A stretch of 64,000 nt of DNA from CAYFZR01 sp046760505 [NCBI: Candidatus Hydrothermarchaeota archaeon] (GTDB lineage Archaea; CAYFZR01). Below, in pieces: positions 7,101-62,333 of the stretch. The translations under genes were made by a program, and so were the position numbers. Each line of letters starts with the position of its first letter. Position 1 is the first letter of the stretch. The notes below the pieces were generated by a model. The model worked only from the letters and a program-made list of their open reading frames with translations, did not search any database and was not told the DNA's origin. The stretch lies in NCBI GenBank assembly GCA_046760505.1, contig JBHIEG010000011.1, positions 4,365-68,364 of the forward strand, in the 5' to 3' direction.

Positions 7101-7113
7101 AAAGGTGAATATA

Positions 7114-47020: not shown

Positions 47021-47731
47021 CTAGCTCTCCGGGGCTTTTTTACGCACGATAACAACGTACCTAGATGTAAAAAAATTTAATGGAAACATCTTTCTCAAAT
47101 ACCTATGAATCTTTACCCACATACCAAACATATGCTTAGAAAGTCTCTGAGGAAAGTATTCGTGCCCAAGTCTTTTAATTTCATATTCAAATCCGAGTTC
47201 ATTGAATATCTCTCTTATTTCTTTCTCAGAATACCAGAAATCGAATAAAGAACTGTTTTTCCCGAAAAAATTGAAAATTTTAAACAAATAGCCGTTAAAA
47301 GATTCTATTTTTGGAAAAGATATGATTACTAGATTATTAGAGGCTCTTATCATCTCTCTTATCATCTTTGTCGATTTAAATACAGCGGTTAATCCTGCTG
47401 AGTTAACTACATCAAAACTATTATCTTTAAAGGGTAAGTATTCTGCATCTCCTCTAACGAGAAAGCATGAGGAGTTTACTTTGTTTAACATTTCCGCTGA
47501 AAAATCTAATCCACAAACAAAGTCTGATATTTTGGATAATTCTCTTAGAAATCTTCCTGTTCCGCATCCAACATCTAATATGCGGTCCTTTTTAGAGACA
47601 TTCATGATTTTTAAATGCTCATATAGACCCTCCTTTCTCACCTCCCCTAAAATAGATGGAGCATCGAGATCATGATATCTATTTGCTCTAAAATCATAGT
47701 ACCGGAGGATCTTCTCCTTCAAGGAGGACAC
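47021..47731 (-). CDS. Class I SAM-dependent methyltransferase
   Basis: The 236-residue protein has motif I ILDVGCGTGRFLREL, then FVCGLDFSAEML, VRGDAEYLPFKDNSFDVVNSAG, the usual layout of Methyltransf_11 enzymes. The substrate is not known. The start is GTG 47731 with a run of G residues (AGGGGGG) seven bases upstream; it lies 38 bases inside the upstream unknown gene. It is followed closely by exonuclease III. Confidence 0.85.
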   Translation of the reverse strand: MSSLKEKILRYYDFRANRYHDLDAPSILGEVRKEGLYEHLKIMNVSKKDRILDVGCGTGRFLRELSKISDFVCGLDFSAEMLNKVNSSCFLVRGDAEYLPFKDNSFDVVNSAGLTAVFKSTKMIREMIRASNNLVIISFPKIESFNGYLFKIFNFFGKNSSLFDFWYSEKEIREIFNELGFEYEIKRLGHEYFPQRLSKHMFGMWVKIHRYLRKMFPLNFFTSRYVVIVRKKAPES

Positions 47732-48007: not shown

Positions 48008-48604
48008 ATGAATTTCAAGGACTTTCACGGGCACATCTGTCCAATGTCCATACTTGGTATCAAGATGTCTAACTATGCTCTAAAACTTTTGGATATCAAC
48101 TCAAAAAAAGAGGGGATCATAGCGATTCCCGAAATAAGAAACTGCATGGTGGATGGAATACAGTGGACTATTGGCGCCACTTTCGGAAAGACAAATCTTA
48201 TTTTTAGAGATATCGGGAAATATGCGTGTGTATTCAGCAGGGAGAAGGACGGAAGGTCTCTCAGGATAAAAATAAAAGATGATATAGTTGAAAAAAGTCT
48301 TGAATACGGAAAAGAAGCCCAAATGGTCCGTAAAAGACTTTCTAAAATGGATGAAGAAGAAAAAAGATGGGAATTGGAACTGCTGTTCAGAAAGGGAAGG
48401 AACATAGTTGACTACATAGAAAAAAAGGACTATGAAGATCTCTTCGAGGTGAATGATGTAGAGCTGAATCTTAAGATAGAGGAAGATTCCCTTGATGTAA
48501 AAAGGTGTGATAAATGCGGAGAAATCACTTTGAAAGAAAAATTGACGGACAATTTATGCAAAGATTGCCTGGATCCTTTCTATTCTATAAAAACTATTCC
48601 ATAA
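48008..48604 (+). CDS. FmdE-family protein with C-terminal zinc ribbon (copy 1)
   Basis: The 198-residue protein starts directly with the FmdE motif FHGHICPMSILGIKMSNYAL (His and Cys at about residues 7-11), continues with EIRNCMVDGIQWTIGATFGKTNL and a helical region, and ends in a zinc ribbon (CDKC at about 164, CKDC about 182). FmdE proteins take their name from a protein encoded beside tungsten/molybdenum formylmethanofuran dehydrogenase; the role may concern metals, but is not settled. A second copy lies at 53693-54373. No other formylmethanofuran dehydrogenase gene is in the window. Confidence 0.88.
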   Translation: MNFKDFHGHICPMSILGIKMSNYALKLLDINSKKEGIIAIPEIRNCMVDGIQWTIGATFGKTNLIFRDIGKYACVFSREKDGRSLRIKIKDDIVEKSLEYGKEAQMVRKRLSKMDEEEKRWELELLFRKGRNIVDYIEKKDYEDLFEVNDVELNLKIEEDSLDVKRCDKCGEITLKEKLTDNLCKDCLDPFYSIKTIP

Positions 48605-48624
48605 AGGATTATTAATCATCTATA

Positions 48625-49521
48625 TCAGAAGAAATACTTGTGCATGCAATCATTTCTAAGTATCTCTTCGTACTTCTTTTTTATATTTTGAGTCATCCAG
48701 GGCTTTATTTCATGTACTGCGTCCAAGAAATCTTTCATAGATATTTCATCAAATGAATCTCCTCTCTCCTTAATTGCATTTAAGGCTGCTCTCCTACATA
48801 ATGCTTCAAGATCCCATCCAACAAAGTTTTCTGTTTTTCTGGCTATTTCCTCAAGATTAACATCTCTTGCAAGAGGATAATTCTTTGTATACATTTTTAG
48901 GATCTTCAATCTATCTTCTTGACTGGGAGGAGGAACATAGATCTTTTTCTCAAGTCTACCTCTCCTAAAAATCGCCATATCAACTACATCAAGTCTGTAT
49001 CCCGATCCTACCACTAAAATATAGGAATCTTCTTTTAATGAATCTATGCCTTTGAATACTATCTCAGAGACTTCTTTGGATGCTATCTTATCTGGTTTTC
49101 CCCTCTCATCTCGATTTCCCCAATCGTAGGAACAATTTCTTCTTGGAACAATCCAGTCCAGATCGCTGATATGCATAATGCATGGTTTATTTTCTCTGGC
49201 AAGCTTAAAAGCCTTAGAAACAGCCTCTGGAAGATCTGTTACCTCTCTTCCTCTGAGATAAACGTAGTTAACTCCGGCTTCACTTGCAGAGGCTTCTGCT
49301 AGAATAGCCTTTCCTGACCCAAGCGGACCCCATAAAAAAACACCAGTTGGAACCTTAAGATTTAATTTATTGAATGTTTTCATATGTTTTAAGGGAATGC
49401 AAATCATTTCCCTGATTTTTTCCTTTACCTCTTCGAGTCCAGCGATATCATCGAACGTTACCCTTGGCTTCCTCACATCGAGATAGGCGTTGTGATAGTG
49501 CATGGTCACACCAAAAGGCAT
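48625..49521 (-). CDS. AAA ATPase-like protein with degenerate active site
   Basis: The 298-residue protein matches the AAA module of CDC48/proteasome ATPase type: VTFDDIAGLEEVKEKIREMI, Walker A region GPLGSGKAILAEA at 65-77, the RRGRLEKKIYVPPPSQEDR arginine-finger and sensor region, and the C-terminal helical subdomain. Key residues are changed. The Walker A threonine is alanine (GKA rather than GKT) and the Walker B IDEID is ISDLD (about 118-122), losing the usual catalytic acid pair. It may bind nucleotide without turnover, or with poor turnover. It is a single gene; the aminotransferase upstream is about 70 bases away. Confidence 0.85.
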   Translation of the reverse strand: MPFGVTMHYHNAYLDVRKPRVTFDDIAGLEEVKEKIREMICIPLKHMKTFNKLNLKVPTGVFLWGPLGSGKAILAEASASEAGVNYVYLRGREVTDLPEAVSKAFKLARENKPCIMHISDLDWIVPRRNCSYDWGNRDERGKPDKIASKEVSEIVFKGIDSLKEDSYILVVGSGYRLDVVDMAIFRRGRLEKKIYVPPPSQEDRLKILKMYTKNYPLARDVNLEEIARKTENFVGWDLEALCRRAALNAIKERGDSFDEISMKDFLDAVHEIKPWMTQNIKKKYEEILRNDCMHKYFF

Positions 49522-49594
49522 CTTAATCTATTCTTAATTTATACTGTTTCTATCCTCCATAACCTGTCTTCATTATTCTCCATTAACTACTTCC

Positions 49595-50695
49595 TTACCC
49601 TATGCTGTTCAATATATCCAGCAGTTTAGAAATGTCTTCCTCGCTGTTGTATATGTGGGGTGAAAACCTTATGTATTCTCGAAAAGATGCTATAACACCT
49701 TTATTTAAGAGATATTTTTCATTCAAATTATTTTTAATTGAAATAATCCCTGATCTATTTTTTCTTTCAAAAGAACTCAATAATTCGAATTTTTCTAGTC
49801 CTTCTAAGAGCGATGTAGCCAGATCAAGTACTCTTTTTTGAATTTTCTTTAATCCTATTGAAAATATAAGTTCGAGAGCGGATTTCATCCCGATGATAGC
49901 CGAGATATCCATATTTCCTATCTCAAATCTGGATGCTGAATCTTTTAACTCATATCTGTAAATATTCATGGCTTTGTAATCTTTGACGGATAACCAGCCT
50001 AGAATAGGCGGATCGTCTATTAATTCTTCCTTTATATAGAAAATTCCAGATCCTAACGGAGAAAGAAGCCATTTGTATCCGCCTGCTGATAAAAAATCAA
50101 TATTGTAGCTCTTTACATCCATTTCAAAGACTCCAAGTGATTGGGTAGCATCCACGTGGAGTAAAACACCCTTTTCAACGCAGATCTTTCCTATCTCATT
50201 TAAATCTACTCTGAAGCCATTGCCGTACATCACTGAGCTTATTGAAACCAACTTTGTGTTATCATCGATTTCTCTCTCCAATTCTTCTGGCAGTAGTTTT
50301 CCACCTACGTTCCTCACGTACTTTATCTCTACCCCTTTTCTCCTAAGATTTAGGAAAGGATATATGTTTGCTGGAAAATCTAGGTCGCTTACGATCACGT
50401 TATCTCCCTTTTCCCAGTCTATTATTAAAGCCACAAGATTTACGCCCTCAGATGTATTCTTTACGAAGGCTATCTCAGATTCTTTAGCCCTGCAGATCTT
50501 TGCTGCCAGTTTCCTGCAATCTTCTACTTCCTGAGACCACTTATCGAAGCATAAAGATCCATAAATTGCTCTCTCAAGTTCAAATTTTCTCATAGAATCG
50601 ATGACCGGATAGCAGTAAGGAGAAAGAGATGCCGCATTAAAGTAGAGGAACTTATTTACGATTGGAAAAAGATTTCTTAAAGATTCGAATTTCAT
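49595..50695 (-). CDS. Class V aminotransferase (cysteine desulfurase-like)
   Basis: The 366-residue PLP enzyme has a SEGVNLVAL segment, VDATQSLG (aspartate 182 for the PLP nitrogen) and SAGGYKWLLSPLGSG (lysine 208 for the Schiff base). The Cys region of desulfurases near the C-terminus is not evident, so it may be an aminotransferase or lyase of this fold rather than a sulphur-donor enzyme. The start overlaps the upstream ABC ATPase gene by 44 bases, so the two are translated together; it may act on the substance that the transporter brings in (inference). Confidence 0.85.
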   Translation of the reverse strand: MKFESLRNLFPIVNKFLYFNAASLSPYCYPVIDSMRKFELERAIYGSLCFDKWSQEVEDCRKLAAKICRAKESEIAFVKNTSEGVNLVALIIDWEKGDNVIVSDLDFPANIYPFLNLRRKGVEIKYVRNVGGKLLPEELEREIDDNTKLVSISSVMYGNGFRVDLNEIGKICVEKGVLLHVDATQSLGVFEMDVKSYNIDFLSAGGYKWLLSPLGSGIFYIKEELIDDPPILGWLSVKDYKAMNIYRYELKDSASRFEIGNMDISAIIGMKSALELIFSIGLKKIQKRVLDLATSLLEGLEKFELLSSFERKNRSGIISIKNNLNEKYLLNKGVIASFREYIRFSPHIYNSEEDISKLLDILNSIG

Positions 50696-51482
50696 CGGAT
50701 CTTCCCTCTAAACATGTCTCTTTATCTCTAACCTCTTTCTTTAATAGATCCCAAATCTCCTGCCTTATTTCCGGAAACTTGGGATTTGTTTTTGCCTCAT
50801 CTCTGGGTCTTGAGAGTTCTATATCTATTATTTCTTTTATCCTAGCAGGTCTTGAAGACATTACCGCTACTCTATCAGATAAATAAATGGCTTCGTCAAT
50901 GTTGTGCGTCACGTAGATTATCGTTTTTTTCGTCCTATTCCAAATTCTCAGCAACTCTCTCTGTAGATTCTCACTGGTCAGAGCGTCTACCGAAGCGAAT
51001 GGCTCGTCCATCAAGAGCACGTCAGGATCTGTTGAAAGTGCCCTTGCAAGAGCGGCTCTCTGCATCATTCCTCCAGAAAGATCCCTTGGATAAACATCTT
51101 CGAAGCCCTTTAGCCCAACCAGTTCTATGTAATATTTTGCGATTCTCTCCCTTTCCCTCTTCTTTATTCTTCTTATCTCTAGTCCCAACTCAACATTTTT
51201 CATCACGGTTCTCCAGGGTAATAAGGCATAGCCCTGAAAAAGCATGCCTCTATCAAGTCCGGGTCCTTTAATCTCCTTACCGTTGATTTTTACGATTCCA
51301 TGCGTGGGTTCTTCTAATCCTGCTATTATATTCAGTAGAGTTGTTTTTCCGCACCCGCTTGGTCCAACAATACCTAAAAACTCGCCATCTCTTACATCTA
51401 AGGACAAATCTTTTAAAACTACCAAATCAGAGTTATCTAAGCGAAATACCTTTGTTAAGTTTTCTATACTTATCTTTGCCAT
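50652..51482 (-). CDS. ABC transporter ATP-binding protein, NitT/TauT type
   Basis: The 276-residue ATPase has Walker A GPSGCGKTT at about 40-48, Q-loop FQGYALLPWRTV, signature LSGGMMQRAALARAL, Walker B VLLMDEPFASVDALT and the switch His in VTHNIDEAI; the LPWRTV and FASVDALT segments are typical of SsuB/TauB/NrtD. A GGAGAT ribosome site and a TATA-like box about 51536-51545 lie upstream. The matching lipoprotein (52735) and permease (54349) are nearby on other transcripts. The substrate is unknown. Confidence 0.93.
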   Translation of the reverse strand: MAKISIENLTKVFRLDNSDLVVLKDLSLDVRDGEFLGIVGPSGCGKTTLLNIIAGLEEPTHGIVKINGKEIKGPGLDRGMLFQGYALLPWRTVMKNVELGLEIRRIKKRERERIAKYYIELVGLKGFEDVYPRDLSGGMMQRAALARALSTDPDVLLMDEPFASVDALTSENLQRELLRIWNRTKKTIIYVTHNIDEAIYLSDRVAVMSSRPARIKEIIDIELSRPRDEAKTNPKFPEIRQEIWDLLKKEVRDKETCLEGRSDEIRIFKKSFSNRK

Positions 51483-51599
51483 ATTTGATCTCCACGATAA
51501 AGTGTCTGGAATGCCATAAGAACCACTGTAATCTCTTATATTTTTACTCTTTCATTTGAGATAACATTTAAGAAATAAGATTTAGACTCATTAGAAATA

Positions 51600-52667
51600 A
51601 TGAATGTTGCGAGAAAAAAGATATTACTGCAGTCAAAAGGAGTCAGAATAGATTTTGATCTGGAAAATAAGTTGAAAAAAAGATTTTCTGGCGTAACTCA
51701 GGACTTCATGTCATTTTTCATGGATGAAATTCCTGTTGGAATACTCAATGGATATTTTACTGAAGAATCTCCCTTTGAAATAAGGCAAATTGGAAATGAG
51801 CAATTTGTATTCAAGAGCGATGAGTTATTCGCTAAGATAAGATTCTTACCTCGGCCCGATTTCTTGAACAAAAGGACTTCTGAGGGAATAAAAATGGAAG
51901 ACCTTTGTAACTATGTCGCACCTGGTTTTCTTATCATATATCTGAGTCAGAGATGTGTCTACTGGAGAGTAAAAAAACAGTGTAAATTCTGCGTTACAGA
52001 ATATGAGGATAAACTGGCTGAGAAAAATAAAGAACAGATTGTGGAGTTGGTAGAACAGGCATTAAAAGAGGGGTCAATAAAGACTCATGTAAATCTTACT
52101 ACCGGAACTCTAAAAGGACCTGATAGGGGGATTAAGCCTTTAGCTGAGGTAACGAATGCGATAAAAGAGAGATTCGACGTTAAGGTAAGTGTAAATGGAG
52201 AACCGCCTAGAGATCTTAAATATTTGGATTTACTGGAAAACGCGGATTCTTTGTACATAAACATCGAGATTTTTGATGAGAAATACAGAAAAGAATTGAT
52301 GCCTGGAAAAGGAATGATACCCATAGAACACTATGTTGAGGTATTTAAAAAGTCTTTAGAGATATTTGACGAAAATCAGGTGTGCTCAACCCTTCTAGCT
52401 GGTCTACAGAGGGATGAGAAACTGTTAGAGGGAGCAGAGTTCCTAGCTCAGTTAGGGGTGTTACCGGTCGTACTGCCCTTTTATCCTAGACCATTCACAC
52501 CATTAGAAAATTTAAAGCCTCCAGATGCTGAGAGAATGGAAAAGATCTATGCAGAGACATCAGAGATAATAAAAGACTATGGATTAGATCCATTTAAGAC
52601 AAAAGCAGGGTTCATGAGGGGAGGCGCTATCTTTGCACTGAAAGAGGTTTATGAATCTTTATGTTAA
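51600..52667 (+). CDS. Radical SAM protein with C-x8-C-x2-C cluster motif
   Basis: The 355-residue protein has a TIM-barrel-like body with the cysteine set QRCVYWRVKKQCKFC near residues 117-131, that is C-x8-C-x2-C in place of the usual C-x3-C-x2-C. After it come HVNLTTGTLKGPDRGI, VKVSVNGEPPRDLKYL, LYINIEIFDEKYR and VLPVVLPFYPRPFTP, in line with the barrel strands of radical SAM enzymes. The first 110 residues form a separate lead domain. The reaction is unknown. It diverges from the NitT/TauT ATPase gene over 117 bases and precedes the lipoprotein gene on the same strand, so a role in the same pathway is likely. Confidence 0.8.
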   Translation: MNVARKKILLQSKGVRIDFDLENKLKKRFSGVTQDFMSFFMDEIPVGILNGYFTEESPFEIRQIGNEQFVFKSDELFAKIRFLPRPDFLNKRTSEGIKMEDLCNYVAPGFLIIYLSQRCVYWRVKKQCKFCVTEYEDKLAEKNKEQIVELVEQALKEGSIKTHVNLTTGTLKGPDRGIKPLAEVTNAIKERFDVKVSVNGEPPRDLKYLDLLENADSLYINIEIFDEKYRKELMPGKGMIPIEHYVEVFKKSLEIFDENQVCSTLLAGLQRDEKLLEGAEFLAQLGVLPVVLPFYPRPFTPLENLKPPDAERMEKIYAETSEIIKDYGLDPFKTKAGFMRGGAIFALKEVYESLC

Positions 52668-52734
52668 TTAATCCAAAGGTTGCATTAAAATATCGGAAAC
52701 TTTTAAATATCCTCAACTTCTTTAACTTGCAAAT

Positions 52735-53700
52735 ATGTATATTACTAGGTTAACACTAATCATGATTATTGTAATGCTACTTTTGAGCGGTTGCATTTCA
52801 AGAGTTCCTGAAAGAGAACTCCCAATGAGGATAGGACAACTCAGCGGCGTTGCCAACGAGGAATACTTCGCGATATATAACAATTACTTCGAAAAGGAAG
52901 GATTGAACATCACATGGGTTCCTTTCAGGGGAGGATCCGGTGTAGTTCAAGCGGCAATTGCAAACCAGATAGATGGCGGCGTGATGGGATCTGTACCTGC
53001 GGTTATAAAAGCTGTTTCCAGAGGAGTACCATTGAAAATTGTTGCAGTGGGAGCATTAGAAACTAAGGAACATTCTGGAGACAGGCTAGTTGTTTTAAAA
53101 AAATCAGGAATAAAGGATATCAAGGATCTAAAGGGCAAAAAGATTGCAGTGCATAGATTCGGAACAACGCTGGACTTTATAGTCAGAAGAGTATTAAAAG
53201 AGAACGGCATAGATCCGGTTAAGGATGTCACACTGGTTCAAGTGCCAGTGCCTCAAATGGTCCCGGTGCTTCAGAGAGGAGAGGTAGATGCTGCTTTCAT
53301 CTTCCCCTATTTCTATCCTTATGTAAAAGACAACGTGACAATTTTAATCACTCCAGGAGACGTGTATCCAGAGGGATTTCCAATTAGTGTGGTTTTTTTC
53401 AGGGAAGAATTTATACAAGAGCACCCAGAAAAAGTTGAAAAATTCGTTAGGGCTTATCTAAAGGGTATTGAATGGGGAGAAAACAACCCCGACAAGTTAC
53501 CGGATCTCGTTGTAAAATACACAGATATACCAAGAGAAATAGCCACAGAAATCCCATGGCCTGCAAATAATCCCTCAGGCAGGGTAGATTCGAAAACATT
53601 CGATAAAATAATAAGTGATATAAAAGATTACGATCCTACGCTTTTAGAAAAGAATGTTACAGGGGAAGATTTATTAGATTATAGATTCTTGCCTACTTGA
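52735..53700 (+). CDS. ABC transporter substrate-binding lipoprotein, NitT/TauT type
   Basis: The 321-residue protein has a signal peptide with lipobox LLLSGC (C20), then the NMT1/SsuA-like fold: RIGQLSGVANEEYFAIYNNYF, VPFRGGSGVVQAAIANQIDGG, IKDLKGKKIAVHRFGTTLDF, VPVLQRGEVDAAFI and HPEKVEKFVRAYLKGIEW. Such proteins bind sulfonates, nitrate, aromatic or pyrimidine compounds; the ligand here is not predictable. A TATA-like box at about 52701-52710 makes the message leaderless. It converges on the FmdE gene with an eight-base overlap. Confidence 0.92.
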   Translation: MYITRLTLIMIIVMLLLSGCISRVPERELPMRIGQLSGVANEEYFAIYNNYFEKEGLNITWVPFRGGSGVVQAAIANQIDGGVMGSVPAVIKAVSRGVPLKIVAVGALETKEHSGDRLVVLKKSGIKDIKDLKGKKIAVHRFGTTLDFIVRRVLKENGIDPVKDVTLVQVPVPQMVPVLQRGEVDAAFIFPYFYPYVKDNVTILITPGDVYPEGFPISVVFFREEFIQEHPEKVEKFVRAYLKGIEWGENNPDKLPDLVVKYTDIPREIATEIPWPANNPSGRVDSKTFDKIISDIKDYDPTLLEKNVTGEDLLDYRFLPT

Positions 53701-54373
53701 TTTCCTTATAAATTCCCTCTCCTGCGCAGGGGCGACAGTATCTCTTTCCATCTTTTTCTACTGTTTTTCTCTCTTCCACCAGATCATTGCATCGAGCGCA
53801 TTTTATCGCATTCGTTATGTATTGAGTGTCCAGAGGATACATCATGTCCTCTGGATTCACTTTGACCTCTGAAACTATGAACAGTTCATCATCTCCCATT
53901 TTGTTCCATTTCTCTAACAATCCGTCTTCAATATCAAATAATTCCTTTCTCCATTTCTCTGCTTCTTCATCAGAGAGATTATCTACCTTTTCGTAAAATT
54001 TTGCCAACTCAGATCCATACCTTATGTGCTCTTCATCAACATCTTCTCTGCACCTTATTCTAATGGTCTTGCCAGTTCTTCGATCGCAAAATATGGCTGC
54101 GAACTTTCCATAATCCTTGAAGGTTAATCTGCCGCTTCCAAAAGAGCAATTCGTTGCGCTGGCTATTCCATCTGCTGCACAGGTTAGAACCTCCACTGTA
54201 GCGCATAAATCTCTTTTCCTTTTAATATCAAGTTTTTTTAGAGCTAACATACCCATTCTGGCCCCTAAATAAGAGGCCGTACAGACATGACCATGTACTC
54301 TTCTCACGGTTTCTAGTATCTCATCGAGAGTCATTTCCTTCAGTTCTTTTAGACTCTTATCTCTCTTCTCCAT
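53693..54373 (-). CDS. FmdE-family protein with C-terminal zinc ribbon (copy 2)
   Basis: The 226-residue protein has the FmdE motif VHGHVCTASYLGARMGMLAL near residues 26-45, CAADGIASATNCSFGSGRL, a helical middle and a C-terminal zinc ribbon (CARC at about 190, CRPC about 213). Copy 1 lies at 48008. It starts 25 bases inside the permease gene, so it is translated with the transporter and is probably functionally tied to it. FmdE is a poorly understood family; metal handling is one possibility. Confidence 0.88.
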   Translation of the reverse strand: MEKRDKSLKELKEMTLDEILETVRRVHGHVCTASYLGARMGMLALKKLDIKRKRDLCATVEVLTCAADGIASATNCSFGSGRLTFKDYGKFAAIFCDRRTGKTIRIRCREDVDEEHIRYGSELAKFYEKVDNLSDEEAEKWRKELFDIEDGLLEKWNKMGDDELFIVSEVKVNPEDMMYPLDTQYITNAIKCARCNDLVEERKTVEKDGKRYCRPCAGEGIYKEIK

Positions 54374-55113
54374 CTGGTCGTCCTCCTCTCTATTGCGAGC
54401 ATAATTTCATTGAATATGAATCCTATCATGCCTATGGTAAATATTCCGGCGAACATCTTTTCGGTTTGAAATGCATATTCCGCATCCAATATCAAGAATC
54501 CCAAGCCTGCTCTAGCCCCAATCATTTCAGTTACAATGAGCAGTATCAAAGAGACAGCAAGGGATAATCTTAGACCCGTGATTATAAATGGGGTCGCGCT
54601 AGGTAAGATTATCTTCGTAACTATTTGAAGGCGAGAAGCCTCGAACAATTTTGCCACGTTTACAAGGTTTAAATCCACGTGTCTCACTCCTGATATCGTG
54701 TTTAGAAGTATTGGAAAATAGCAGGCAAAAGCAATTATCAGGATTTTTGAGGCATTTTCAATGCCCAACCATAAGATTGCGACAGGAATTAAAGCAGCAG
54801 CAGGTATAGGTCTAAACAACTCTACGATAGGATTAGAAATATCTTCAACAGTCCTAGACAAGGCTATCAGGATTCCATGGGGTATAGCGATAATCGCTGC
54901 TATGAAAAAACCGGAGAGCGCTCGATAGAGACTTACCTTTACATGTGTAATCAATTCTCCGTTCATTATAAGCGTGATGAAGGTTAGAAGAACCTTAGAA
55001 GGTGCTGGAAGGAAAAGAGAACTCACTAAACCTAGATCACAGAAAACTTCCCATAAAAAGAAAAATATCAAGAGAGAGCCAATTCTTAGAAGGTATCTCC
55101 GATTCAATTTCAT
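54349..55113 (-). CDS. ABC transporter permease, NitT/TauT (SsuC/TauC) type
   Basis: The 254-residue integral membrane protein has about six hydrophobic helices and the EAA loop FEASRLQIVTKIILPSATPF with the conserved E-A-x3-G-like and P residues, typical of the permease subunit. Other markers are RPIPAAALIPVAILWLGI and SLAVSLILLIVTEMIG. It starts immediately after the AmrS-like gene and overlaps the FmdE gene at its end. It is the permease partner of the ATPase at 50652 and lipoprotein at 52735. Confidence 0.93.
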   Translation of the reverse strand: MKLNRRYLLRIGSLLIFFFLWEVFCDLGLVSSLFLPAPSKVLLTFITLIMNGELITHVKVSLYRALSGFFIAAIIAIPHGILIALSRTVEDISNPIVELFRPIPAAALIPVAILWLGIENASKILIIAFACYFPILLNTISGVRHVDLNLVNVAKLFEASRLQIVTKIILPSATPFIITGLRLSLAVSLILLIVTEMIGARAGLGFLILDAEYAFQTEKMFAGIFTIGMIGFIFNEIMLAIERRTTRWRREIRV

Positions 55114-56103
55114 TTAAAACACCAGTGGTATTTCATTTCCGCATTTACATTTTTTTTCCATTAATTTCCAATCAGTAATGTCGTATCCTTCCCTTTTTAT
55201 AATTAGATTCTTGCATTTGGGACAGTATGTGTTTTTCCCAGGATGGGAATAAATGTTCTCCAAGTAAACGTATTCCAATCCGCTTTCATAAGCGAGATTT
55301 AACGCTGATTCCATCACATCTAAGGGAGTAGAACTTATATTGTCCATCCTGTAACTCGGTATATATCGAAGAAAAATTAGCGGAGAGTTCAAAAGCCCCG
55401 CAAAATTAATTACTTCTCCCAAATTTTTTTGATAATTAGGTATTAAGACATAAACGATTTCTAAATGAATTTTTTCCTCTTTTATAAATAAAGCAAGGTC
55501 TCTTATTTCATTCAAGACTTTTTTTCTTGAACTCCCACAAACGTTTCTGTAGAATGAATCATCTCCTTTTAGAGAGATGATAACTGCATCCGTGTAATTA
55601 GATATGTGCTTAAAGGCATCTTTTGAAATTAATCCGTTTGTAGCAAATACATTTAATAATTTTTTTTCATCAGCGTCTTTCATTATTTCTGAATAGTACT
55701 CTAAGTTGAGAGTTGGTTCAGAATGAGTGTATACGATGCCCTTACAATCGAGTTCTAAAGCTGCCCTAACAAGTTTCTTAGGCATCAAGAAGACGGTACT
55801 TATTTCTTCAAGCGGAACCTGAGTAATGTTCCAAGTTAAGCAAAATTCGCACCTGAGGTTGCATCCAGCACTTCCTATCATCAAAAAACGATTGTTTGGG
55901 TAGAAATGAAAGCATGGTGTTTTTTCTATAGGATCTACGCTAAAACTGGTAAGTTTCCCGTAAATAAGATTGTATAATTTTCCTTTTCGGTTTTCTCTTA
56001 CCCCGCAAAATCCTCTTCTTCCCTCTTCAATCGTGCATTGAAAAATACAAAGCTTGCACCTTATCTTACCGTTATTTTTAGAGTAGAACATCGCCTCCTT
56101 CAT
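55114..56103 (-). CDS. Diverged AmrS-like radical SAM protein
   Basis: A paralogue of AmrS at 12850-13851. It keeps the cysteine-rich lead (CKLCIFQC, RGFCGVREN), the radical SAM triad C81, C85 and C88 (GCNLRCEFCLTW) and the C-terminal zinc-like CPKC and CKC. It departs from AmrS at three conserved sites: HSEPTLN replaces YNEPTIW, IISLKGDD replaces VDIKGFSD and RYIPSYRM replaces RFHPHYKM. The function has probably changed. The ORF opens at 56139, but ATG 56103 lies 26 bases after a TATA-like box (56125-56134) and matches family starts. Its stop directly precedes the ABC permease start, so they form one operon. Confidence 0.88.
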   Translation of the reverse strand: MKEAMFYSKNNGKIRCKLCIFQCTIEEGRRGFCGVRENRKGKLYNLIYGKLTSFSVDPIEKTPCFHFYPNNRFLMIGSAGCNLRCEFCLTWNITQVPLEEISTVFLMPKKLVRAALELDCKGIVYTHSEPTLNLEYYSEIMKDADEKKLLNVFATNGLISKDAFKHISNYTDAVIISLKGDDSFYRNVCGSSRKKVLNEIRDLALFIKEEKIHLEIVYVLIPNYQKNLGEVINFAGLLNSPLIFLRYIPSYRMDNISSTPLDVMESALNLAYESGLEYVYLENIYSHPGKNTYCPKCKNLIIKREGYDITDWKLMEKKCKCGNEIPLVF

Positions 56104-56124
56104 CAAAGAGCCTTTGGACAAGAT

Positions 56125-56134
56125 GATATAAAAA
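56125..56134 (-). promoter_or_regulatory. TATA-like box of the AmrS-like/permease/FmdE operon
   Basis: The minus strand reads TTTTTATATC. It is 26 bases from ATG 56103, so that gene's message is leaderless and the start at 56139 is unlikely. Confidence 0.5.
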
Positions 56135-56135
56135 T

Positions 56136-56669
56136 TCATTCTTGAGATTCTTTGAATAACACCTCATCAAAGAAATCAGCCAAGAATCCAGATAATAAAG
56201 CACTAAGAAAAGTTGCAAAGGAGATTAAACAAACAAGTAATAATCCAAAGACAGGGTCATTTGGTTTAACAAAAGCAAAAAATGCATATGCCTGGGGGAA
56301 ACTTAAAACAATTGATCTTGAAGCGGTAAGGGCGGTTACAGATCCTAACGTAGCGCCTTGTTTGAGGAGAGTCGATAGCAGGGGCAACCTAAACAGACCT
56401 TTAGGAGGAGTTATGGTACCGAGTAGCACACCATATAGAAGTCCTTTCTTTCCTGCTTTCTTACCCAAGAGTTTAGAAACGATATTTTCAGGCATGAAGT
56501 TTTGAGTTAAGCCTGCTAACAACATTGCCACTATCACAAGAGGTAGCACTTCGAAAAAAAGGTCTACCGTAAATGAAAGAGCCTCCTTAAATCTAGAGCT
56601 GTCCAGTGTAAAGAGGGCAAAATAAAAGGCGAGTACTATATATAAGATCCATTGCTCACTTTTTCTCAC
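56136..56669 (-). CDS. UPF0718-like permease, second half of a split pair
   Basis: The protein is 177 residues from GTG 56669 and has about five hydrophobic helices, with VLPLVIVAMLLAGLTQNFMPENIVSKLLG and LLYGVLLGTITPPKGLFRLPLLSTLL in pieces. This repeats the pattern of the upstream gene and looks like one half of a UPF0718/ArsP-type permease. The GTG overlaps the stop of the upstream half as GTGA, so they are translated in step. The longest frame (to 56897) would run through the upstream gene and carries no membrane pattern, so I reject it. The substrate is unknown. Confidence 0.75.
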   Translation of the reverse strand: MRKSEQWILYIVLAFYFALFTLDSSRFKEALSFTVDLFFEVLPLVIVAMLLAGLTQNFMPENIVSKLLGKKAGKKGLLYGVLLGTITPPKGLFRLPLLSTLLKQGATLGSVTALTASRSIVLSFPQAYAFFAFVKPNDPVFGLLLVCLISFATFLSALLSGFLADFFDEVLFKESQE

Positions 56670-57148
56670 AGAAAACCACCCATAAAACTCGCTATGATTC
56701 CAGCGAAAAATGCTCCGGTGATTATTGCAAGCGCCTGGATCTTCATTATGCGTGTATCCAGAAATGCATATGCTTGAGGCAGGTACAAGAGGGAAAAACT
56801 TGCAAGGAGTGCTGTAACAGCGCCAATTCCCGCTCCAAGTTGTAGTAAGGTCACAACAACTGGCAATCGAATGTAGGGTCCTCCTGGAAGTATACAACCT
56901 AGGGCAACGCCGAATAATATACTTCTATATCCATGCGAACCTCCCAAAAAAGTTATAACAAGATTTTCTGGCAGTACGGAATGAACTATACCTGCTAAGG
57001 CTATACCAGCGAGCAATAGGTAAAAGGTATTCAGAAAGGTATCGTATGAGTATCTCAGGCTCTTCCTAGTTTTTTCTTCATCTCTGTAGTAACAGAAAAG
57101 ATACATCAAAATACAAAGCAAAATGAAGGTTACCTCTATGATTTCCAT
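56666..57148 (-). CDS. UPF0718-like permease, first half of a split pair
   Basis: The 160-residue product has about five hydrophobic helices and SVLPENLVITFLGG and LFGVALGCILPGGPYIRLPV; the last element, a proline-rich stretch at a membrane turn, recurs in the second half. It thus looks like one half of a UPF0718/ArsP-type permease whose halves are normally one protein. Its stop overlaps the next start (GTGA). Upstream lies the divergent exported-protein gene at 57211. Whether the split is ancestral or a frameshift cannot be told; no shared domain is lost. Confidence 0.75.
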   Translation of the reverse strand: MEIIEVTFILLCILMYLFCYYRDEEKTRKSLRYSYDTFLNTFYLLLAGIALAGIVHSVLPENLVITFLGGSHGYRSILFGVALGCILPGGPYIRLPVVVTLLQLGAGIGAVTALLASFSLLYLPQAYAFLDTRIMKIQALAIITGAFFAGIIASFMGGFL

Positions 57149-57210: not shown

Positions 57211-57882
57211 ATGTACGACAAAGGCATTGTAATCTTTATATCATCAACTTTCATATTATTGCCCATAGTAAATCTTTTAGAAAATCCATTTGAAGTCCAG
57301 AGAGATCAAAATTTAGAGAATTTCTTAGCTTTAAAGCCCCTTTTTTATTTTGAAGGAAATTCCAGTTTAATAAGGGAGGCGACTAAATATGAGATCGAAA
57401 AGATAAAACTATTCTCGAATTTCGTTTCAATGAATCAATCTCAAAGAGAAACTTTGGATAAATTCCTCTCTGCCTACAATAAAACAATGGAAGACATTAT
57501 ACTGTGCTCGAATCTTGAGCATAAAATTAGAAGTGCACCCTCTTATGAATTAGCATTAAGAATAGAGGAACAGTACAGAAAAATATTAAGGGATTATGAG
57601 TTAATGATTTCCTATTTGCTAGATCTAAGTGGTTTTATGGAAGACTATCCAGACGATTTAGTCGTTAGAGAAAAATACGGCTACAAAATTACTGTTTATG
57701 ATATTAAAAGAGAGGTAGAACTCTGTATGGAAAACAAAGATTCAATCGCAAAAGAAATAGAAAGAAGGAGTGAAATACTGCATAAAAATGATGTTGCGAA
57801 AAGGTTAATCTTAGAGCAATTTATTCTTCTATTGATGGTGATTTCCGTGGTAATTTATGTATTCAGGAGGTATAGATCTTGA
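57211..57882 (+). CDS. Exported membrane-anchored helical protein (module B family)
   Basis: The 223-residue product has an N-terminal signal or membrane helix, a helical body and a C-terminal membrane helix (about 199-217). The body reads like the middle of the large neighbour at 58346: LKPLFYFEGNSSLI against EDPLFYSLGDPSFL, SAYNKTMEDIILCSNLEHKI against QDYKVLGKDIEACSSLTNKI, and IEEQYRKILRDYELMISYLL against LYDRIYSDYMVFVSDLEAF-like. AGGTGG precedes the ATG. No known family; I call this module B. The next gene starts with TTG inside its stop. Confidence 0.7.
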   Translation: MYDKGIVIFISSTFILLPIVNLLENPFEVQRDQNLENFLALKPLFYFEGNSSLIREATKYEIEKIKLFSNFVSMNQSQRETLDKFLSAYNKTMEDIILCSNLEHKIRSAPSYELALRIEEQYRKILRDYELMISYLLDLSGFMEDYPDDLVVREKYGYKITVYDIKREVELCMENKDSIAKEIERRSEILHKNDVAKRLILEQFILLLMVISVVIYVFRRYRS

Positions 57883-58343
57883 TTTTACTGTTGGTTTTAT
57901 TCAACATATCCTCTATTTTATCCAGTTATCCTATTCCTTATGCAAACGAAAGTGCATTTATAGATGGTCCCTACCACGTTATGGACCATAAGTACTATGC
58001 GGTTACCTATAGCGATAAAGAAATTCAGGGGATATTCATTTTAAACTCTACCGGATACCTAGAACTGGACAAGTTAATATGGCAGGAGGTTCTCATGAAA
58101 AAATACAACCGTAGTCTTACCGCTTGGGACTACTACATAATAAGAAAGACAGAGAACAGAATTTTCAAGAGGATTCGTCTAGAAATAATGCTTGAATTAA
58201 TAAAAAAGGGTATGAGACCTACAATGTTCTCATTGATCCACGATCTTACGTCGGATATCATTCACGACAACCCGTTTTTATGGCGCATGAGAGTAAAAGA
58301 GCCTAAAACTTTCCTCAGATTACCAAGACGCTTGGAGGGATAA
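57879..58343 (+). CDS. Exported protein with module A and C-terminal HDLTSD motif
   Basis: The 154-residue product starts at TTG (TTGA overlap with the upstream stop, AGGAGG eight bases before). It has a signal peptide, a module with FIDGPYHVMDHKYYAVTYSD and a C-terminal end LIHDLTSDIIHDNPFLW followed by FLRLPRRLEG. The same ends occur in the larger neighbour (VDGPYYYESRAYYIFDF and LLHDLTSDLVYDSKFLW), so it is a smaller paralogue of that protein's second half. Function unknown. Confidence 0.7.
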   Translation: MILLLVLFNISSILSSYPIPYANESAFIDGPYHVMDHKYYAVTYSDKEIQGIFILNSTGYLELDKLIWQEVLMKKYNRSLTAWDYYIIRKTENRIFKRIRLEIMLELIKKGMRPTMFSLIHDLTSDIIHDNPFLWRMRVKEPKTFLRLPRRLEG

Positions 58344-58345
58344 CG

Positions 58346-60220
58346 ATCAGAAAAGAATTCAAAGTTGTTCCACCTTTTATTCTATTAATTCTTATTCTAC
58401 CATTTCTATTATTCATGCCGGCTTTTTGTGTTAAGGAAGAGATAAGAGAGAAGGCAAAAGAACTTGCTACTCCTCAAGAAGTAGTCATGATAGAGGGGCC
58501 AATATACTACAGGAATGATCCTTTTTATCTGGTAGATTTCGTATCAAAAGGAGAAGTAAAAAATTCACTTGTTTACGATGCCAATGCAAACTTGGTTGAG
58601 AATTCAACCATAGAAAAGAAGATACTTGCTACATACTCTTTTTATGAAGTAACAAGAGAAGATCCATTGTTTTATTCATTGGGAGATCCTTCTTTCTTGC
58701 CCAAGGCATTTGATTATGATGTAGAAAACGTAAAAAATTTCATGGAGTACTGTTCGATTTCAGATCAGGAAAAGAAAATCGTTTTAAAGAGTTTACAAGA
58801 TTATAAGGTTTTGGGTAAAGACATTGAAGCATGCAGTAGCTTAACCAATAAAATTTTGAACTGGAAAAATCCTTCCCGAATAGAGATTGATTTTAAAGAA
58901 GATATCCCTAAGGCAAGAATAACTATAGTAAATAGAACAGGCAAGCTTTCATACGAAGATTGTATCAAACTAACTGAATTGTACGACAGGATTTATTCTG
59001 ATTACATGGTCTTTGTATCAGATTTGGAGGCTTTTTCTTCTCTAATAACTGTTTTTCCAGAAGAAAAGCGCAGGCAGAAGTACAATTTAACTGTTACAGA
59101 TAAAGACATATTAGACGAAGTAACCGCTCTTAAAGAAAACGGTAATGCAATGAAACTTGAGATAGATTCGAGAAAGAAAATAATGGGCATACAGGAAGTG
59201 CTCAGGGAGCCTCGATCTCCTTCATACAAAAACTACAAGTTATTAGCGTTTGTCCTTATAATTCTCTTAGTTACAATTCTACGCCTGCGTGGAAAATTAT
59301 TTTTCATGACTCTTATTCTGCTTCTCACCCTTTCTCTTGCAATAGAAACGCCTGAAGAAATAATGGAAAAACAGGTCATGGATCCGAGTAAAATGGATCT
59401 GAAGATATACGCTAAAGGGATTTCCGATTCTGAAGTGAGAAAAGTTTTAGAAGGTTATCCTTTCATGCTTAAAGGTGAAAAGGTCATAGTAGATGGTCCC
59501 TACTACTACGAAAGCCGAGCCTACTACATATTTGATTTTAAGAAAGAGGGAGAGCCTCCAGGAAGTGTTCTGATAGTCGATGCGATACACAAAAGAAAGC
59601 TTCCGGCTCGTAAGATAATTGTTCGATTGTATAGAACTAGGTATCTTGTTAATTCAGTAAAGGAAAAGCCTTTATTCATCCAAAATGAAACCAAAATTAA
59701 AGAATATGCACTGAATGCGAATGATCCTACGATTTCTGTTTTATTGGCAAGACTCGCGGCCTATATTGAAACAGGTAAAGCATTAGAAAGAAGTTTAGTT
59801 GGATATCCAAGTTTCGAGAATGCCAGAGAACTTGCAAGAACTTATTTCAGGACAGAAAAGACATTGGAGACATTAGAAAAGATTTTAAATGAAGAAAAAG
59901 TATCCAATATGACTCAGGGCTTGAACCGGGAGAGTCCATTTTTAAAGGGTAGATATCAGCTTATCACTCAAATAATGGCTGATGAGTACTATTATACCTC
60001 TAAAGGAAGATACAGAACCAGATCTATAAGTCGAATTCCCTTGATGAAGGATCTTGCTAGAACAGGCTCAAAACCTTCTGATATTCAATTGCTCCATGAT
60101 TTAACATCTGATCTTGTCTATGATTCTAAATTCTTATGGTTCGCTGGGAAACCTGCGAGAAAATCTATGTTTGTAAGAATGCCACGCAAGTTCGGAGAGA
60201 TAACGAATCTTACTTTCTGA
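58346..60220 (+). CDS. Large two-part exported membrane protein (fused modules), no canonical start codon
   Basis: From the first ATG at 58415 the protein has 601 residues. The frame is open upstream and encodes a clear signal helix (RKEFKVVPPF then ILLILILPFLLF) just before that ATG, so the real start lies upstream. No ATG, GTG or TTG is there. GGAGG at 58334-58338 lies four bases before ACG 58343 and seven before ATC 58346; I use the latter. Layout: signal, module A (IEGPIYYRNDPFYLVDF), module B, a hydrophobic stretch (about 295-335) that looks like a C-terminal anchor joined to a second signal peptide, a second module A and the HDLTSD ending. It thus resembles a fusion of two genes of the kind upstream. 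No known family. Confidence 0.75.
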   Translation: MRKEFKVVPPFILLILILPFLLFMPAFCVKEEIREKAKELATPQEVVMIEGPIYYRNDPFYLVDFVSKGEVKNSLVYDANANLVENSTIEKKILATYSFYEVTREDPLFYSLGDPSFLPKAFDYDVENVKNFMEYCSISDQEKKIVLKSLQDYKVLGKDIEACSSLTNKILNWKNPSRIEIDFKEDIPKARITIVNRTGKLSYEDCIKLTELYDRIYSDYMVFVSDLEAFSSLITVFPEEKRRQKYNLTVTDKDILDEVTALKENGNAMKLEIDSRKKIMGIQEVLREPRSPSYKNYKLLAFVLIILLVTILRLRGKLFFMTLILLLTLSLAIETPEEIMEKQVMDPSKMDLKIYAKGISDSEVRKVLEGYPFMLKGEKVIVDGPYYYESRAYYIFDFKKEGEPPGSVLIVDAIHKRKLPARKIIVRLYRTRYLVNSVKEKPLFIQNETKIKEYALNANDPTISVLLARLAAYIETGKALERSLVGYPSFENARELARTYFRTEKTLETLEKILNEEKVSNMTQGLNRESPFLKGRYQLITQIMADEYYYTSKGRYRTRSISRIPLMKDLARTGSKPSDIQLLHDLTSDLVYDSKFLWFAGKPARKSMFVRMPRKFGEITNLTF

Positions 60221-60257: not shown

Positions 60258-60692
60258 ATGAAAAATACGGATAAGGCTTATTACTGGCTAAAAATGGCGG
60301 AAGAAGATTATAAAGATGCCAAGATAAGTATAGAAAATAAAAGATTTCCCAGCGCTGTTTTTCATGCTCAACAATGCTGTGAGAAGGTTTGTAAAGCAAT
60401 ACTGGTTTACTTTGGTATAGAGCCGGGAAAGAATTTTCCATCTCACCAAATAGAGCTAAGAATAATAAGGGGAAATAAATATAGTTTAGAAAAAGAAAAA
60501 CTTGAAATTCTTGAAAGAATTGTTTCGCTTTCTCATATTCTTGAAAGCCAAAAAGAATTTCCAAGATATGGCTGGGAGACAGTGGACAGGATAATAATGC
60601 CTTCTGAAATTTATGATGCAACAAAATCAACATTGCTTTTTAAGAATGGCGCGGAGGTTTTAAGGCTTGCAAAAAATCTCCTCGGAATATAA
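60258..60692 (+). CDS. HEPN-domain protein (toxin-like, pair 1)
   Basis: The 144-residue helical protein has the HEPN layout: AYYWLKMAEEDYKDAKIS, FPSAVFHAQQCCEKVCKAIL and an R-x5-H element in RIVSLSHILES near 94-104, followed by FPRYG. HEPN proteins of this kind are RNases that act as toxins or as partners of minimal nucleotidyltransferases. The gene overlaps the nucleotidyltransferase gene at 60667 by 26 bases, the usual HEPN-MNT order. Confidence 0.88.
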   Translation: MKNTDKAYYWLKMAEEDYKDAKISIENKRFPSAVFHAQQCCEKVCKAILVYFGIEPGKNFPSHQIELRIIRGNKYSLEKEKLEILERIVSLSHILESQKEFPRYGWETVDRIIMPSEIYDATKSTLLFKNGAEVLRLAKNLLGI

Positions 60693-61137
60693 GAAATTGC
60701 TGAATGATTACCTTAATAAGATAAAACATTCAAACAAAATAAGAAAAAGTAAAGTCATAGGCATTTTGCTCTTTGGGTCTCTTGCAAAAGGAAAAGAGCT
60801 TCCTTTTCCAAAAAGCGATATAGATCTTATAGTTGTATGTGAAGACTTGCCTAAAGATTTCTTTAAAAGAGCGGAGTATGTAAGGAATATAGAAAAAGGC
60901 TTTTCAATCATTCAGAGCATATGGATGACTCCCAAGGAATTTTTGGACCACATAAAGGCAAGAGCAGGATATATTCTTGATGCAATTCACGATGGAATCA
61001 TAATCTATGATCGAGAAGGTTTTATGAAGAGAACCATAGAAGAAGCCAAGAAAGAACTGAGAGAAAGAGGAGTAAAAAGGATTGATGGATGCTGGATTTG
61101 GCCTATAAAAAAAGCAGGAGACGTTATTGAGCTTTAG
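60667..61137 (+). CDS. Minimal nucleotidyltransferase (MNT, pair 1)
   Basis: The 156-residue protein has the MNT signature LLFGSLAKGKELPFPKSDIDLIVVC (GS-x10-13-D-x-D; two catalytic aspartates) at about residues 32-57 in shorter pieces (FGSLAKG, SDIDL). In known HEPN-MNT systems the MNT partner blocks the HEPN RNase, in some cases by adding AMP to it. Its gene overlaps the HEPN gene. The C-terminal region (KRIDGCWIWPIKK) resembles the end of pair 2's MNT. Confidence 0.9.
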   Translation: MQKISSEYKKLLNDYLNKIKHSNKIRKSKVIGILLFGSLAKGKELPFPKSDIDLIVVCEDLPKDFFKRAEYVRNIEKGFSIIQSIWMTPKEFLDHIKARAGYILDAIHDGIIIYDREGFMKRTIEEAKKELRERGVKRIDGCWIWPIKKAGDVIEL

Positions 61138-62315: not shown

Positions 62316-62333
62316 GTGCATTATAGAAATCTG

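What the first reader, a model, noticed from the sequence alone, without database searches (positions are those of the whole stretch)
48008..57148. A transporter-FmdE-radical SAM cluster that may be a new pathway
Seen: a complete NitT/TauT-type ABC importer is scattered over three transcripts and mixed with two FmdE-family proteins (one overlapping the permease gene by 25 bases), a class V aminotransferase (44-base overlap with the ATPase gene), a radical SAM protein with odd cysteine spacing, a diverged AmrS paralogue that directly abuts the permease gene, and a split UPF0718-like permease. Known: NitT/TauT importers bring in small organic anions or pyrimidine-like compounds; FmdE is an ill-defined family linked to metal-containing C1 enzymes. 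Inference: the cluster imports a compound or metal precursor and modifies it with radical SAM and PLP chemistry for a C1-pathway cofactor.
Basis: partly seen in the sequence, partly recalled or inferred. Interest (0 to 1): 0.75.

Follow-up and report, generated by a model that had tools for sequence, protein, structure and literature searches.

The report
Archaeal importer, FmdE and radical-SAM cluster
A real, partly conserved group of archaeal genes that in some relatives lies with vitamin-B12-type methyl-transfer genes; it is probably one piece of an undescribed anaerobic one-carbon system, with the importer as an optional add-on.

Summary
The genes are there as described. The window comes from an archaeon nearest, among the genomes held, to Hydrothermarchaeota. 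In Ca. Hydrothermarchaeum profundi (JdFR-18) eight of the cluster's genes lie within about 14 kb in another order, in one island with a corrinoid protein, two MtaA/MtbA-like methyltransferases, a double-cubane-like reductase, a B12 radical SAM protein and SAM methyltransferases, none of which is in the window. Both FmdE paralogues, the odd-spaced radical SAM and the AmrS paralogue have close orthologues in the same patchy five or six of 23 genomes of that phylum; in some carriers (G008) they are scattered over several places. The importer is not core: its permease has close orthologues in 2 of 23 genomes and the ATPase is unlinked in one of these. The binding protein is nearest sulfonate/taurine binders, at about 20% identity. 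Best reading: uptake and accessory part of a corrinoid-linked C1/methyl (probably sulfur) system; substrate and product unproven. Selenium (no SelD over its cut-off in 23 genomes) and thiamine-precursor readings are disfavoured. An overlooked feature: the cluster's AAA protein belongs to a family ending in a conserved C-x-H-x-Y-x-[FY] tail.

The parts
48008..48604 (+). FmdE1: FmdE core domain with metal ligands H7, H9, C11, C46 and C-terminal zinc finger C167, C170, C184, C187
   Evidence: PF02663 E 2.7e-31; these residues conserved in 5 of 5 aligned rows, window included; ligand assignment by analogy with PMC2954224; own clade with window as sister, 93/87
53693..54373 (-). FmdE2: second FmdE paralogue with H27, H29, C31, C65 and zinc finger C192, C195, C213, C216
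   Evidence: PF02663 E 1.2e-29; residues conserved in 7 of 7 rows, window included; clade 100/99; orthologues at 54-59% in 6 of 23 genomes
48625..49521 (-). Short AAA protein, orthologue of 'AAAd' of relatives, Walker A stretch WGPLGSGKA, C-terminal tail DCMHKYFF
   Evidence: AAA and AAA_lid_3 over cut-off; best match L001:2562-3500, 48%; tail Cys and His shared by 15 of 15 family rows; in relatives follows corrinoid protein-UroD1-AAAc
49595..50695 (-). Class V PLP enzyme without the desulfurase cysteine loop
   Evidence: PF00266 E 5.4e-52; no C-terminal Cys in 6 of 6 aligned rows, window included; 41-51% orthologues in 5 of 23 genomes
50652..51482 (-). NitT/TauT-type ABC importer ATPase
   Evidence: SaoA/NtrCD/TauB-like, below the cut-offs shown; 63% orthologue, unlinked, in G001
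51600..52667 (+). Variant radical SAM enzyme, Cx8Cx2C, predicted radical SAM barrel
   Evidence: NF045502 189.5 bits, cut-off 125; C119, C128, C131 invariant in 13 of 13 rows; model pLDDT 91.9, first 35 Foldseek matches are radical SAM enzymes, best E 5.9e-07
52735..53700 (+). Lipoprotein substrate-binding protein, NMT1/SsuA type
   Evidence: PF09084 E 3.8e-30; lipobox LSGC by eye; model pLDDT 84.6, best SsuA 2x26 Z 29.3, rmsd 2.3, 279 aligned, 20% identity
54349..55113 (-). NitT/TauT-type permease
   Evidence: PF00528; 71% to JdFR-18; close orthologues in 2 of 23 genomes
55114..56139 (-). AmrS2: diverged AmmeMemoRadiSam-type radical SAM paralogue
   Evidence: TIGR04337 241.1 bits, cut-off 220; clade apart from canonical AmrS 100/99; C93, C97, C100 in 7 of 7 rows
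56136..56669 (-). UPF0718/ArsP-like half permease b
   Evidence: PF03773 38.7 bits, cut-off 32.3
56666..57148 (-). UPF0718/ArsP-like half permease a
   Evidence: PF03773 35.6 bits, cut-off 32.3; pair also split in G002 (42% and 36%)
47021..47731 (-). SAM-dependent methyltransferase beside FmdE1, as in relatives
   Evidence: PF13649; relatives beside FmdE1 in L001, L088, L093
47694..47990 (-). Small protein beside FmdE1, as in relatives; no known family
   Evidence: no Pfam match; same family in L001, L088, L093, L096, L106
57211..60220 (+). Three ORFs of an unnamed, probably membrane or extracellular family seen in the same neighbourhoods of G001 and G002
   Evidence: match L113:2812-4764 at 29-35%; family also in L097 beside an FmdE and a methyltransferase

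Best explanation
The segment is the uptake and accessory part of an undescribed, patchily distributed archaeal system for anaerobic corrinoid-linked C1 (methyl) chemistry. Shown: two FmdE paralogues, the variant radical SAM protein, the AmrS paralogue and a short AAA protein recur as a set, and in relatives they are linked, wholly (JdFR-18) or in part, to a corrinoid protein, two MtaA/MtbA-like methyltransferases, a double-cubane-like reductase, a B12 radical SAM enzyme and SAM methyltransferases. Inferred: the NitT/TauT-type importer brings in a small anionic, probably sulfur-containing C1 substrate in the species that have it; radical SAM and PLP enzymes process it or prepare a cofactor; the methyltransferases (encoded elsewhere in the window's organism) pass the methyl group to the corrinoid protein and on to the archaeal C1 carrier; FmdE1/FmdE2 serve as metal-binding accessory proteins and the AAA protein remodels or activates a corrinoid or metal enzyme.
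For: Eight genes shared with one 14 kb stretch of JdFR-18 at 40-71% identity while most flanks are not shared. That island continues in line with UroD2, corrinoid protein, UroD1, AAAc, AAAd (G001 C9 about 1,146,700-1,164,350). FmdE2 orthologues (54% or more) in 6 of 23 genomes and the variant radical SAM (50% or more) in the same 6; FmdE1 in 5 of these, AmrS2 (51% or more) in 5, UroD1 (68% or more, the query's own genome included) in 5. On a RadA tree carriers sit among non-carriers (G017 with G018, G019; G008, G009, G012 with G010, G011), which suggests joint gain or loss. In G001, G002, G008 and G009 the AAA orthologue follows corrinoid protein, UroD1 and AAAc. UroD1 (5 of 5) and the two full-length UroD2 rows carry HxC plus a later Cys, the zinc site described for S/Se methyltransferases (PMC10418091, Results read). 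By sequence the SBP's best solved relatives are taurine and sulfonate binders. A second NitT-type importer of JdFR-18 lies beside UroD and corrinoid genes.
Against: None of the corrinoid, UroD, HGD-D or B12-rSAM genes was seen in the window, and no genome is held for it. The permease is missing from four of the six carriers (the SBP was not searched genome-wide), G002 has the permease but no close ATPase, and the ATPase is unlinked in G001. In G008 the set lies on three contigs. G012 lacks UroD1, G002 lacks AmrS2. The PLP enzyme also occurs in G013, which lacks FmdE2. Draft genomes of untold completeness weaken absences. The SBP fold does not single out sulfonates. No step is tested experimentally.
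Confidence: 0.38

Rival explanations
1. Cofactor or metal-centre assembly: the set builds or installs a cofactor (a methanofuran or tetrapyrrole variant, a metal centre, or a protein-derived group), with the importer supplying a metal oxyanion or organic precursor.
For: Several radical SAM enzymes including a B12 type; PqqD-like small proteins before the B12-rSAM in G001, G008, G009, G012 (Pfam in two, tblastn in the others); double-cubane-like reductase; an MfnB-family gene (PF04476) in the FmdE2 run of G008 and, by similarity, G009 and G012; other FmdE copies in the same phylum lie beside MoeA, MobB and an ABC transporter that I take for molybdate-type; FmdE proteins bind Zn/Ni (PMC2954224, passages).
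Against: The linked MtaA/MtbA-like methyltransferases and corrinoid protein point to methyl transfer; no client enzyme is linked consistently; the MfnB adjacency is seen only in three closely related genomes.
Confidence: 0.27
2. Ordinary neighbours: a common sulfonate/taurine-like importer that happens to sit in a conserved but unrelated FmdE/radical SAM island.
For: Permease missing from four of six carriers; SBP, permease and ATPase all resemble TauABC/SsuABC; ATPase unlinked in G001.
Against: SBP and permease lie next to the variant radical SAM in window, G001 and G002, in two arrangements, and near FmdE2 in all three; in the window the permease overlaps FmdE2 and abuts AmrS2.
Confidence: 0.22
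3. SAO-like organometallic or methyl-selenium system.
For: Best NCBIfam hits of permease and ATPase are SaoP and SaoA; an ArsP-like permease is present; some mlp clusters contain a double-cubane protein and Sao genes (PMC10418091).
Against: Sao scores are below cut-off (179 of 295, 272 of 360, 40 of 300 bits). No genome of 23 has a SelD over the cut-off (all 23 have weaker, paralogue-level matches); 2 of 14 controls exceed it. The window's own genome could not be tested.
Confidence: 0.04
4. Thiamine-precursor (pyrimidine) uptake.
For: NMT1/THI5 Pfam hit and ThiY/Thi5 among the first fold matches; G002, which has the permease, shows no ThiC (1.1 Mb draft).
Against: ThiC in 20 of 23 genomes including G001, which has the importer; by sequence ThiY (E 2.8e-06) is far behind TauA and SsuA (E 7e-18, 1e-17).
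Confidence: 0.04

Closest known systems
Type 1 mlp gene clusters (MtaA/MtbA-like methyltransferases, corrinoid protein, Ram/RACE; Kountz and Balskus, PMC10418091)
   Same: In JdFR-18 the island holds two UroD-family methyltransferases with an HxC...C site, a corrinoid protein and a double-cubane-like reductase.
   Different: No such gene seen in the window; FmdE and radical SAM are not mentioned in that paper's text; no SelD over cut-off in the phylum.
FmdE family (PF02663; Axelrod et al. 2010, PMC2954224)
   Same: Same domain, metal ligands and C-terminal zinc finger; adjacency to metal-ion transporters reported.
   Different: Two paralogous clades found here only in the carrier genomes and the window, separate from the FmdE copies linked to MoeA/MobB.
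NitT/TauT-type importers (TauABC, SsuABC, SAO)
   Same: One SBP, one permease, one ATPase of these families.
   Different: Below the cut-offs shown (25 of 189 families listed for the ATPase); genes dispersed, partly unlinked between species.
AmrS of the AmmeMemoRadiSam system (TIGR04337)
   Same: Over the cut-off; same cysteine frame.
   Different: Separate clade 100/99 beside a canonical AmrS in the same window at 12850-13851.
MSMEG_0568-type variant radical SAM (TIGR04043, NF045502)
   Same: NF045502 over cut-off.
   Different: TIGR04043 not reached (193.1 of 303.7 bits).

Membership tests
FmdE (PF02663) | Pfam score over cut-off | tested here: met
   108.8 and 103.5 bits, cut-off 22.9
FmdE (PF02663) | His-x-His-x-Cys plus Cys metal site and treble-clef zinc finger | tested here: met
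   residues conserved in 5 of 5 and 7 of 7 rows; ligands known from PMC2954224; metal binding itself not testable
NitT/TauT importer | SBP, permease and ATPase of the family | tested here: met
Taurine, sulfonate, nitrate or SAO equivalog | curated cut-offs | tested here: not met
   below the cut-offs shown for the three subunits (nearest SsuA_fam 144.2 of 163.5)
AmrS (TIGR04337) | model cut-off | tested here: met
   241.1 of 220 bits
AmrS (TIGR04337) | works with AMMECR1 and Memo partners (recalled) | not tested
   partner genes were not searched for
Variant radical SAM domain NF045502 | model cut-off | tested here: met
   189.5 of 125 bits
MSMEG_0568 family TIGR04043 | model cut-off | tested here: not met
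   193.1 of 303.7 bits
Cysteine desulfurase / selenocysteine lyase | catalytic cysteine on the C-terminal loop (recalled) | tested here: not met
   no cysteine there in 6 of 6 aligned rows
Type 1 mlp gene cluster | Mlp2 and Mlp3, corrinoid protein, Ram/RACE in one cluster | tested here: inconclusive
   UroD2, corrinoid protein and UroD1 are consecutive in JdFR-18 but apart in G008; Mlp clade and RACE not tested; none seen in the window
SAO system | Sao cut-offs; selenocysteine use | tested here: not met
   window proteins; SelD in relatives only
Double-cubane reductase NF040772 (relatives' HGD-D protein) | model cut-off | tested here: not met
   54.7 of 350 bits; PF06050 over cut-off
UPF0718/ArsP_1 | Pfam cut-off | tested here: met
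   35.6 and 38.7 bits, cut-off 32.3; SO_0444 model not reached, 27.6 of 300

The most novel reading that the evidence does not exclude
The AAA trio is not a simple chaperone. Its C-terminal Cys-x-His-x-Tyr-x-aromatic tail, shared by intact and Walker-dead members, carries or receives a cofactor: PqqD-like (RRE) proteins guide the system's radical SAM enzymes to modify or load the tail, FmdE proteins deliver a metal, and the loaded AAA complex works with the corrinoid methyltransferases. This would be a new protein-borne cofactor and a new use of AAA proteins.
Probability: 0.06. Interest if true: 0.88.

Novelty: new variant of a known kind. Interest (0 to 1): 0.52.

Why it matters
FmdE was named from a methanogenesis operon and its function is still open (PMC2954224, abstract and passages); here are two FmdE paralogues that recur with corrinoid methyltransferases, two unusual radical SAM enzymes and tailed AAA proteins in archaea reported not to cycle methane (PMC6775978, passage). 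If the C1 reading holds, it adds a methyl-using route to deep-sea archaea and gives FmdE, AmrS paralogues and variant radical SAM enzymes a testable context.

Tried and rejected
Selenium/organometallic reading (SAO): tested with the selD model, 0 of 23 genomes over cut-off, though all 23 have weaker matches. Pyrimidine import: ThiC in 20 of 23, including G001; absent in G002, G005 and G015. Cysteine desulfurase/Sec lyase role of the PLP enzyme: catalytic Cys absent. 'Split' UPF0718 as a frameshift artefact: rejected, since G002 has the same two-gene form and a bacterial locus (L004, 6039-6557 and 6554-7090, recognised by eye) has a like pair. The radical SAM fold search told only that it is a radical SAM barrel. 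PDB sequence search of AmrS2 and of the variant radical SAM gave no hit at E 0.01 and 0.1. PqqD-like gene in the window: none found by tblastn, best E 1.2. Searches for an earlier description: (FmdE, corrinoid, NitT, double-cubane, AAA ATPase, Hydrothermarchaeota, at least 3 terms) listed 0 papers. Papers: PMC2954224 outline, abstract and passages; PMC13188914 passages; PMC10418091 abstract, Results (both parts) and passages; PMC6775978 and PMC9635834 passages; PMC6759336 searched inside, no passage; Haft and Gwadz 2023 not held, known from a citation only; all others search listings.

Limits: only one phylum could be searched as whole genomes (23 drafts, completeness not told); the one genome-contig scan used the permease; SBP, HGD-D, B12-rSAM and PqqD genes were not searched genome-wide, only seen in fetched regions; G008, G009 and G012 are closely related and count as one lineage. 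The RadA tree is one gene, weakly resolved, 21 of 23 genomes, and the window row has a long branch. No tree was built for the variant radical SAM.
Full report
What is in the window. The UPF0718 pair is two genes with a 4-base overlap (GTG at 56669). A short AAA protein at 48625-49521 lies inside the range but was not mentioned. The ATPase, PLP and AAA genes run in one direction with 73 bases between PLP and AAA.

Where it comes from. No genome is held for the window. The permease is 71% identical to Ca. Hydrothermarchaeum profundi JdFR-18 (L001, G001) and, over part of its length, to a short contig titled only 'archaeon' (L002, G002). RadA is 72% identical to G021 and 67% to G001 of the same phylum, and sits on a long branch of a weakly resolved tree. 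The organism is thus an archaeon related to, perhaps outside, the sampled Hydrothermarchaeota.

The JdFR-18 island. In L001 the order is corrinoid protein, UroD1, AAAc, AAAd, then methyltransferase, FmdE1, small protein, Cys-rich protein, AAAb, Lrp-like regulator, variant radical SAM, SBP, permease, PqqD-like protein, B12 radical SAM, FmdE2, methyltransferase, HGD-D reductase, AmrS2, with a few other genes between. UroD2 stands directly before the corrinoid protein on the next stretch (G001 C9 1163348-1164331). Eight window genes from 47 to 56 kb match here within 14 kb. Outside the cluster only paralogue hits and the 57-60 kb genes match the surrounding 60 kb, so most of the flanks have been shuffled. 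ATPase and PLP orthologues are elsewhere in G001.

Distribution in 23 genomes of the phylum. FmdE2 at 54% or more: 6 of 23 (G001, G002, G008, G009, G012, G017). FmdE1: 5 of 23, these less G009. Variant radical SAM at 50% or more: the same 6; G018 has a 35% relative. AmrS2 at 51% or more: 5 of 23, the carriers less G002. UroD1 at 68% or more: 5 of 23, the carriers less G012, with the query's own genome counted. PLP enzyme at 41% or more: 5 of 23, four carriers plus G013, where a methyltransferase of the FmdE2-linked kind (34%) is beside it. Permease at 64% or more: 2 of 23. UPF0718 half at 36% or more: 1 of 23, with weak matches in 3 others. ATPase at 63%: 1 of the 7 genomes examined, about 600 kb from the permease. 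In G008 the set lies on three contigs. Carriers are not one clade on RadA: G017 groups with non-carriers G018 and G019 (100/100) and G008, G009, G012 with non-carriers G010 and G011 (95/96). This suggests that the core is gained or lost as a set and that the importer is an add-on; missing contigs of draft genomes could account for single absences.

Family trees. AmrS2 of window, G001, G008, G009, G012, G017 form one clade (100/99) apart from canonical AmrS, which the window also has at 12850, and apart from the 43% relative of G002. FmdE1 and FmdE2 each form a clade with the window as sister of the phylum's copies (93/87 and 100/99), and lie apart from the FmdE copies that sit beside MoeA, MobB and a transporter that I take for molybdate-type.

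The methyl-transfer link. In G001, G002, G008 and G009 the window's AAA gene has its orthologue directly after corrinoid protein, UroD1 and AAAc. UroD1 and UroD2 match MtaA/MtbA models below their cut-offs and carry HxC and a later Cys (5 of 5 UroD1 rows at 68% or more; two of four UroD2 rows, the other two being cut before the last Cys). FmdE2, methyltransferase, HGD-D and AmrS2 follow one another in G001 and G017. HGD-D matches PF06050 and, distantly, the double-cubane protein. PLP and AAAb are neighbours in G008 and G009, PLP and AmrS2 in G017. A second NitT-type importer of G001 lies beside UroD and corrinoid genes.

The AAA tail. The 15 rows assigned to this AAA family in the fetched loci (window, G001, G002, G008, G009, G017; G008 and G009 nearly the same) end in [ED]C-x-H, 14 of 15 with Tyr two residues further, all 15 with a final Phe or Tyr. 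A six-frame scan of the window and of the loci over 3 kb held for [ED]CxHxYx[FY]-stop gave 22 hits, all in stop-to-stop frames of 297-314 residues, as these AAA genes and their copies in overlapping loci have. AAAc has lost the Walker A lysine in 5 of 5; AAAd has Gly or Ala in the last place, and Arg for Lys in G008 and G009; AAAb is intact in 5 of 5 (consensus recalled). The tail resembles no motif I can name; the proteasome HbYX motif (recalled) has Tyr in the penultimate place and does not fit.

Substrate. By sequence the SBP's best solved relatives are TauA (E 7e-18) and an SsuA (1e-17), with pyrimidine binders far behind. The model (pLDDT 84.6) is best matched by SsuA (Z 29.3), with CmpA, TauA, NrtA and ThiY at 26 to 27. 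Sulfonate-like anions are favoured and nothing is excluded. ThiC is present in 20 of 23 genomes, G001 included, G002 not; SelD over cut-off in none.

Conclusion. The most likely reading is an uptake and accessory segment of a corrinoid-linked C1/methyl system; cofactor assembly is the nearest rival. The importer is peripheral. Function is inferred from context only.

Noticed in passing
48625-49521; L001:1736-2608, 2562-3500, 6539-7426: Family of short AAA proteins with a conserved C-terminal [ED]CxHx(Y)x[FY] tail, including members without Walker A lysine.
   Followed up: partly
L001:10876-11136, L092:14813-15112: Small PqqD-like (RRE) proteins directly before a B12-binding radical SAM gene and FmdE2 in G001, G008, G009, G012.
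   Followed up: partly
L089:18592-19284: MfnB-family gene (methanofuran synthesis, PF04476) in line with B12-rSAM, FmdE2 and a methyltransferase in G008; same family by similarity in G009 and G012.
   Followed up: partly
L152:11749-15793; L160:9200-11583: Other FmdE copies sit beside MoeA (both), MobB (L160) and an ABC transporter (L152), hinting at a general FmdE link with metal or Mo/W handling.
   Followed up: partly
57211-60220: Unnamed, probably membrane or extracellular proteins whose homologues lie near the same gene set in G001 and G002; no Pfam family over cut-off.
   Followed up: partly
60258-61137 and 62692-63610: Two HEPN/nucleotidyltransferase toxin-antitoxin-type pairs.
   Followed up: no
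61270-62321: Panacea (SocA-like) domain gene overlapping the end of a PIN-domain gene on the other strand.
   Followed up: no
L100:261-6703, L102:4024-10978: Second island in G008, G009, G012, G017: PqqD-radical SAM/SPASM proteins with two variant radical SAM paralogues, a methyltransferase and a TPR protein.
   Followed up: no
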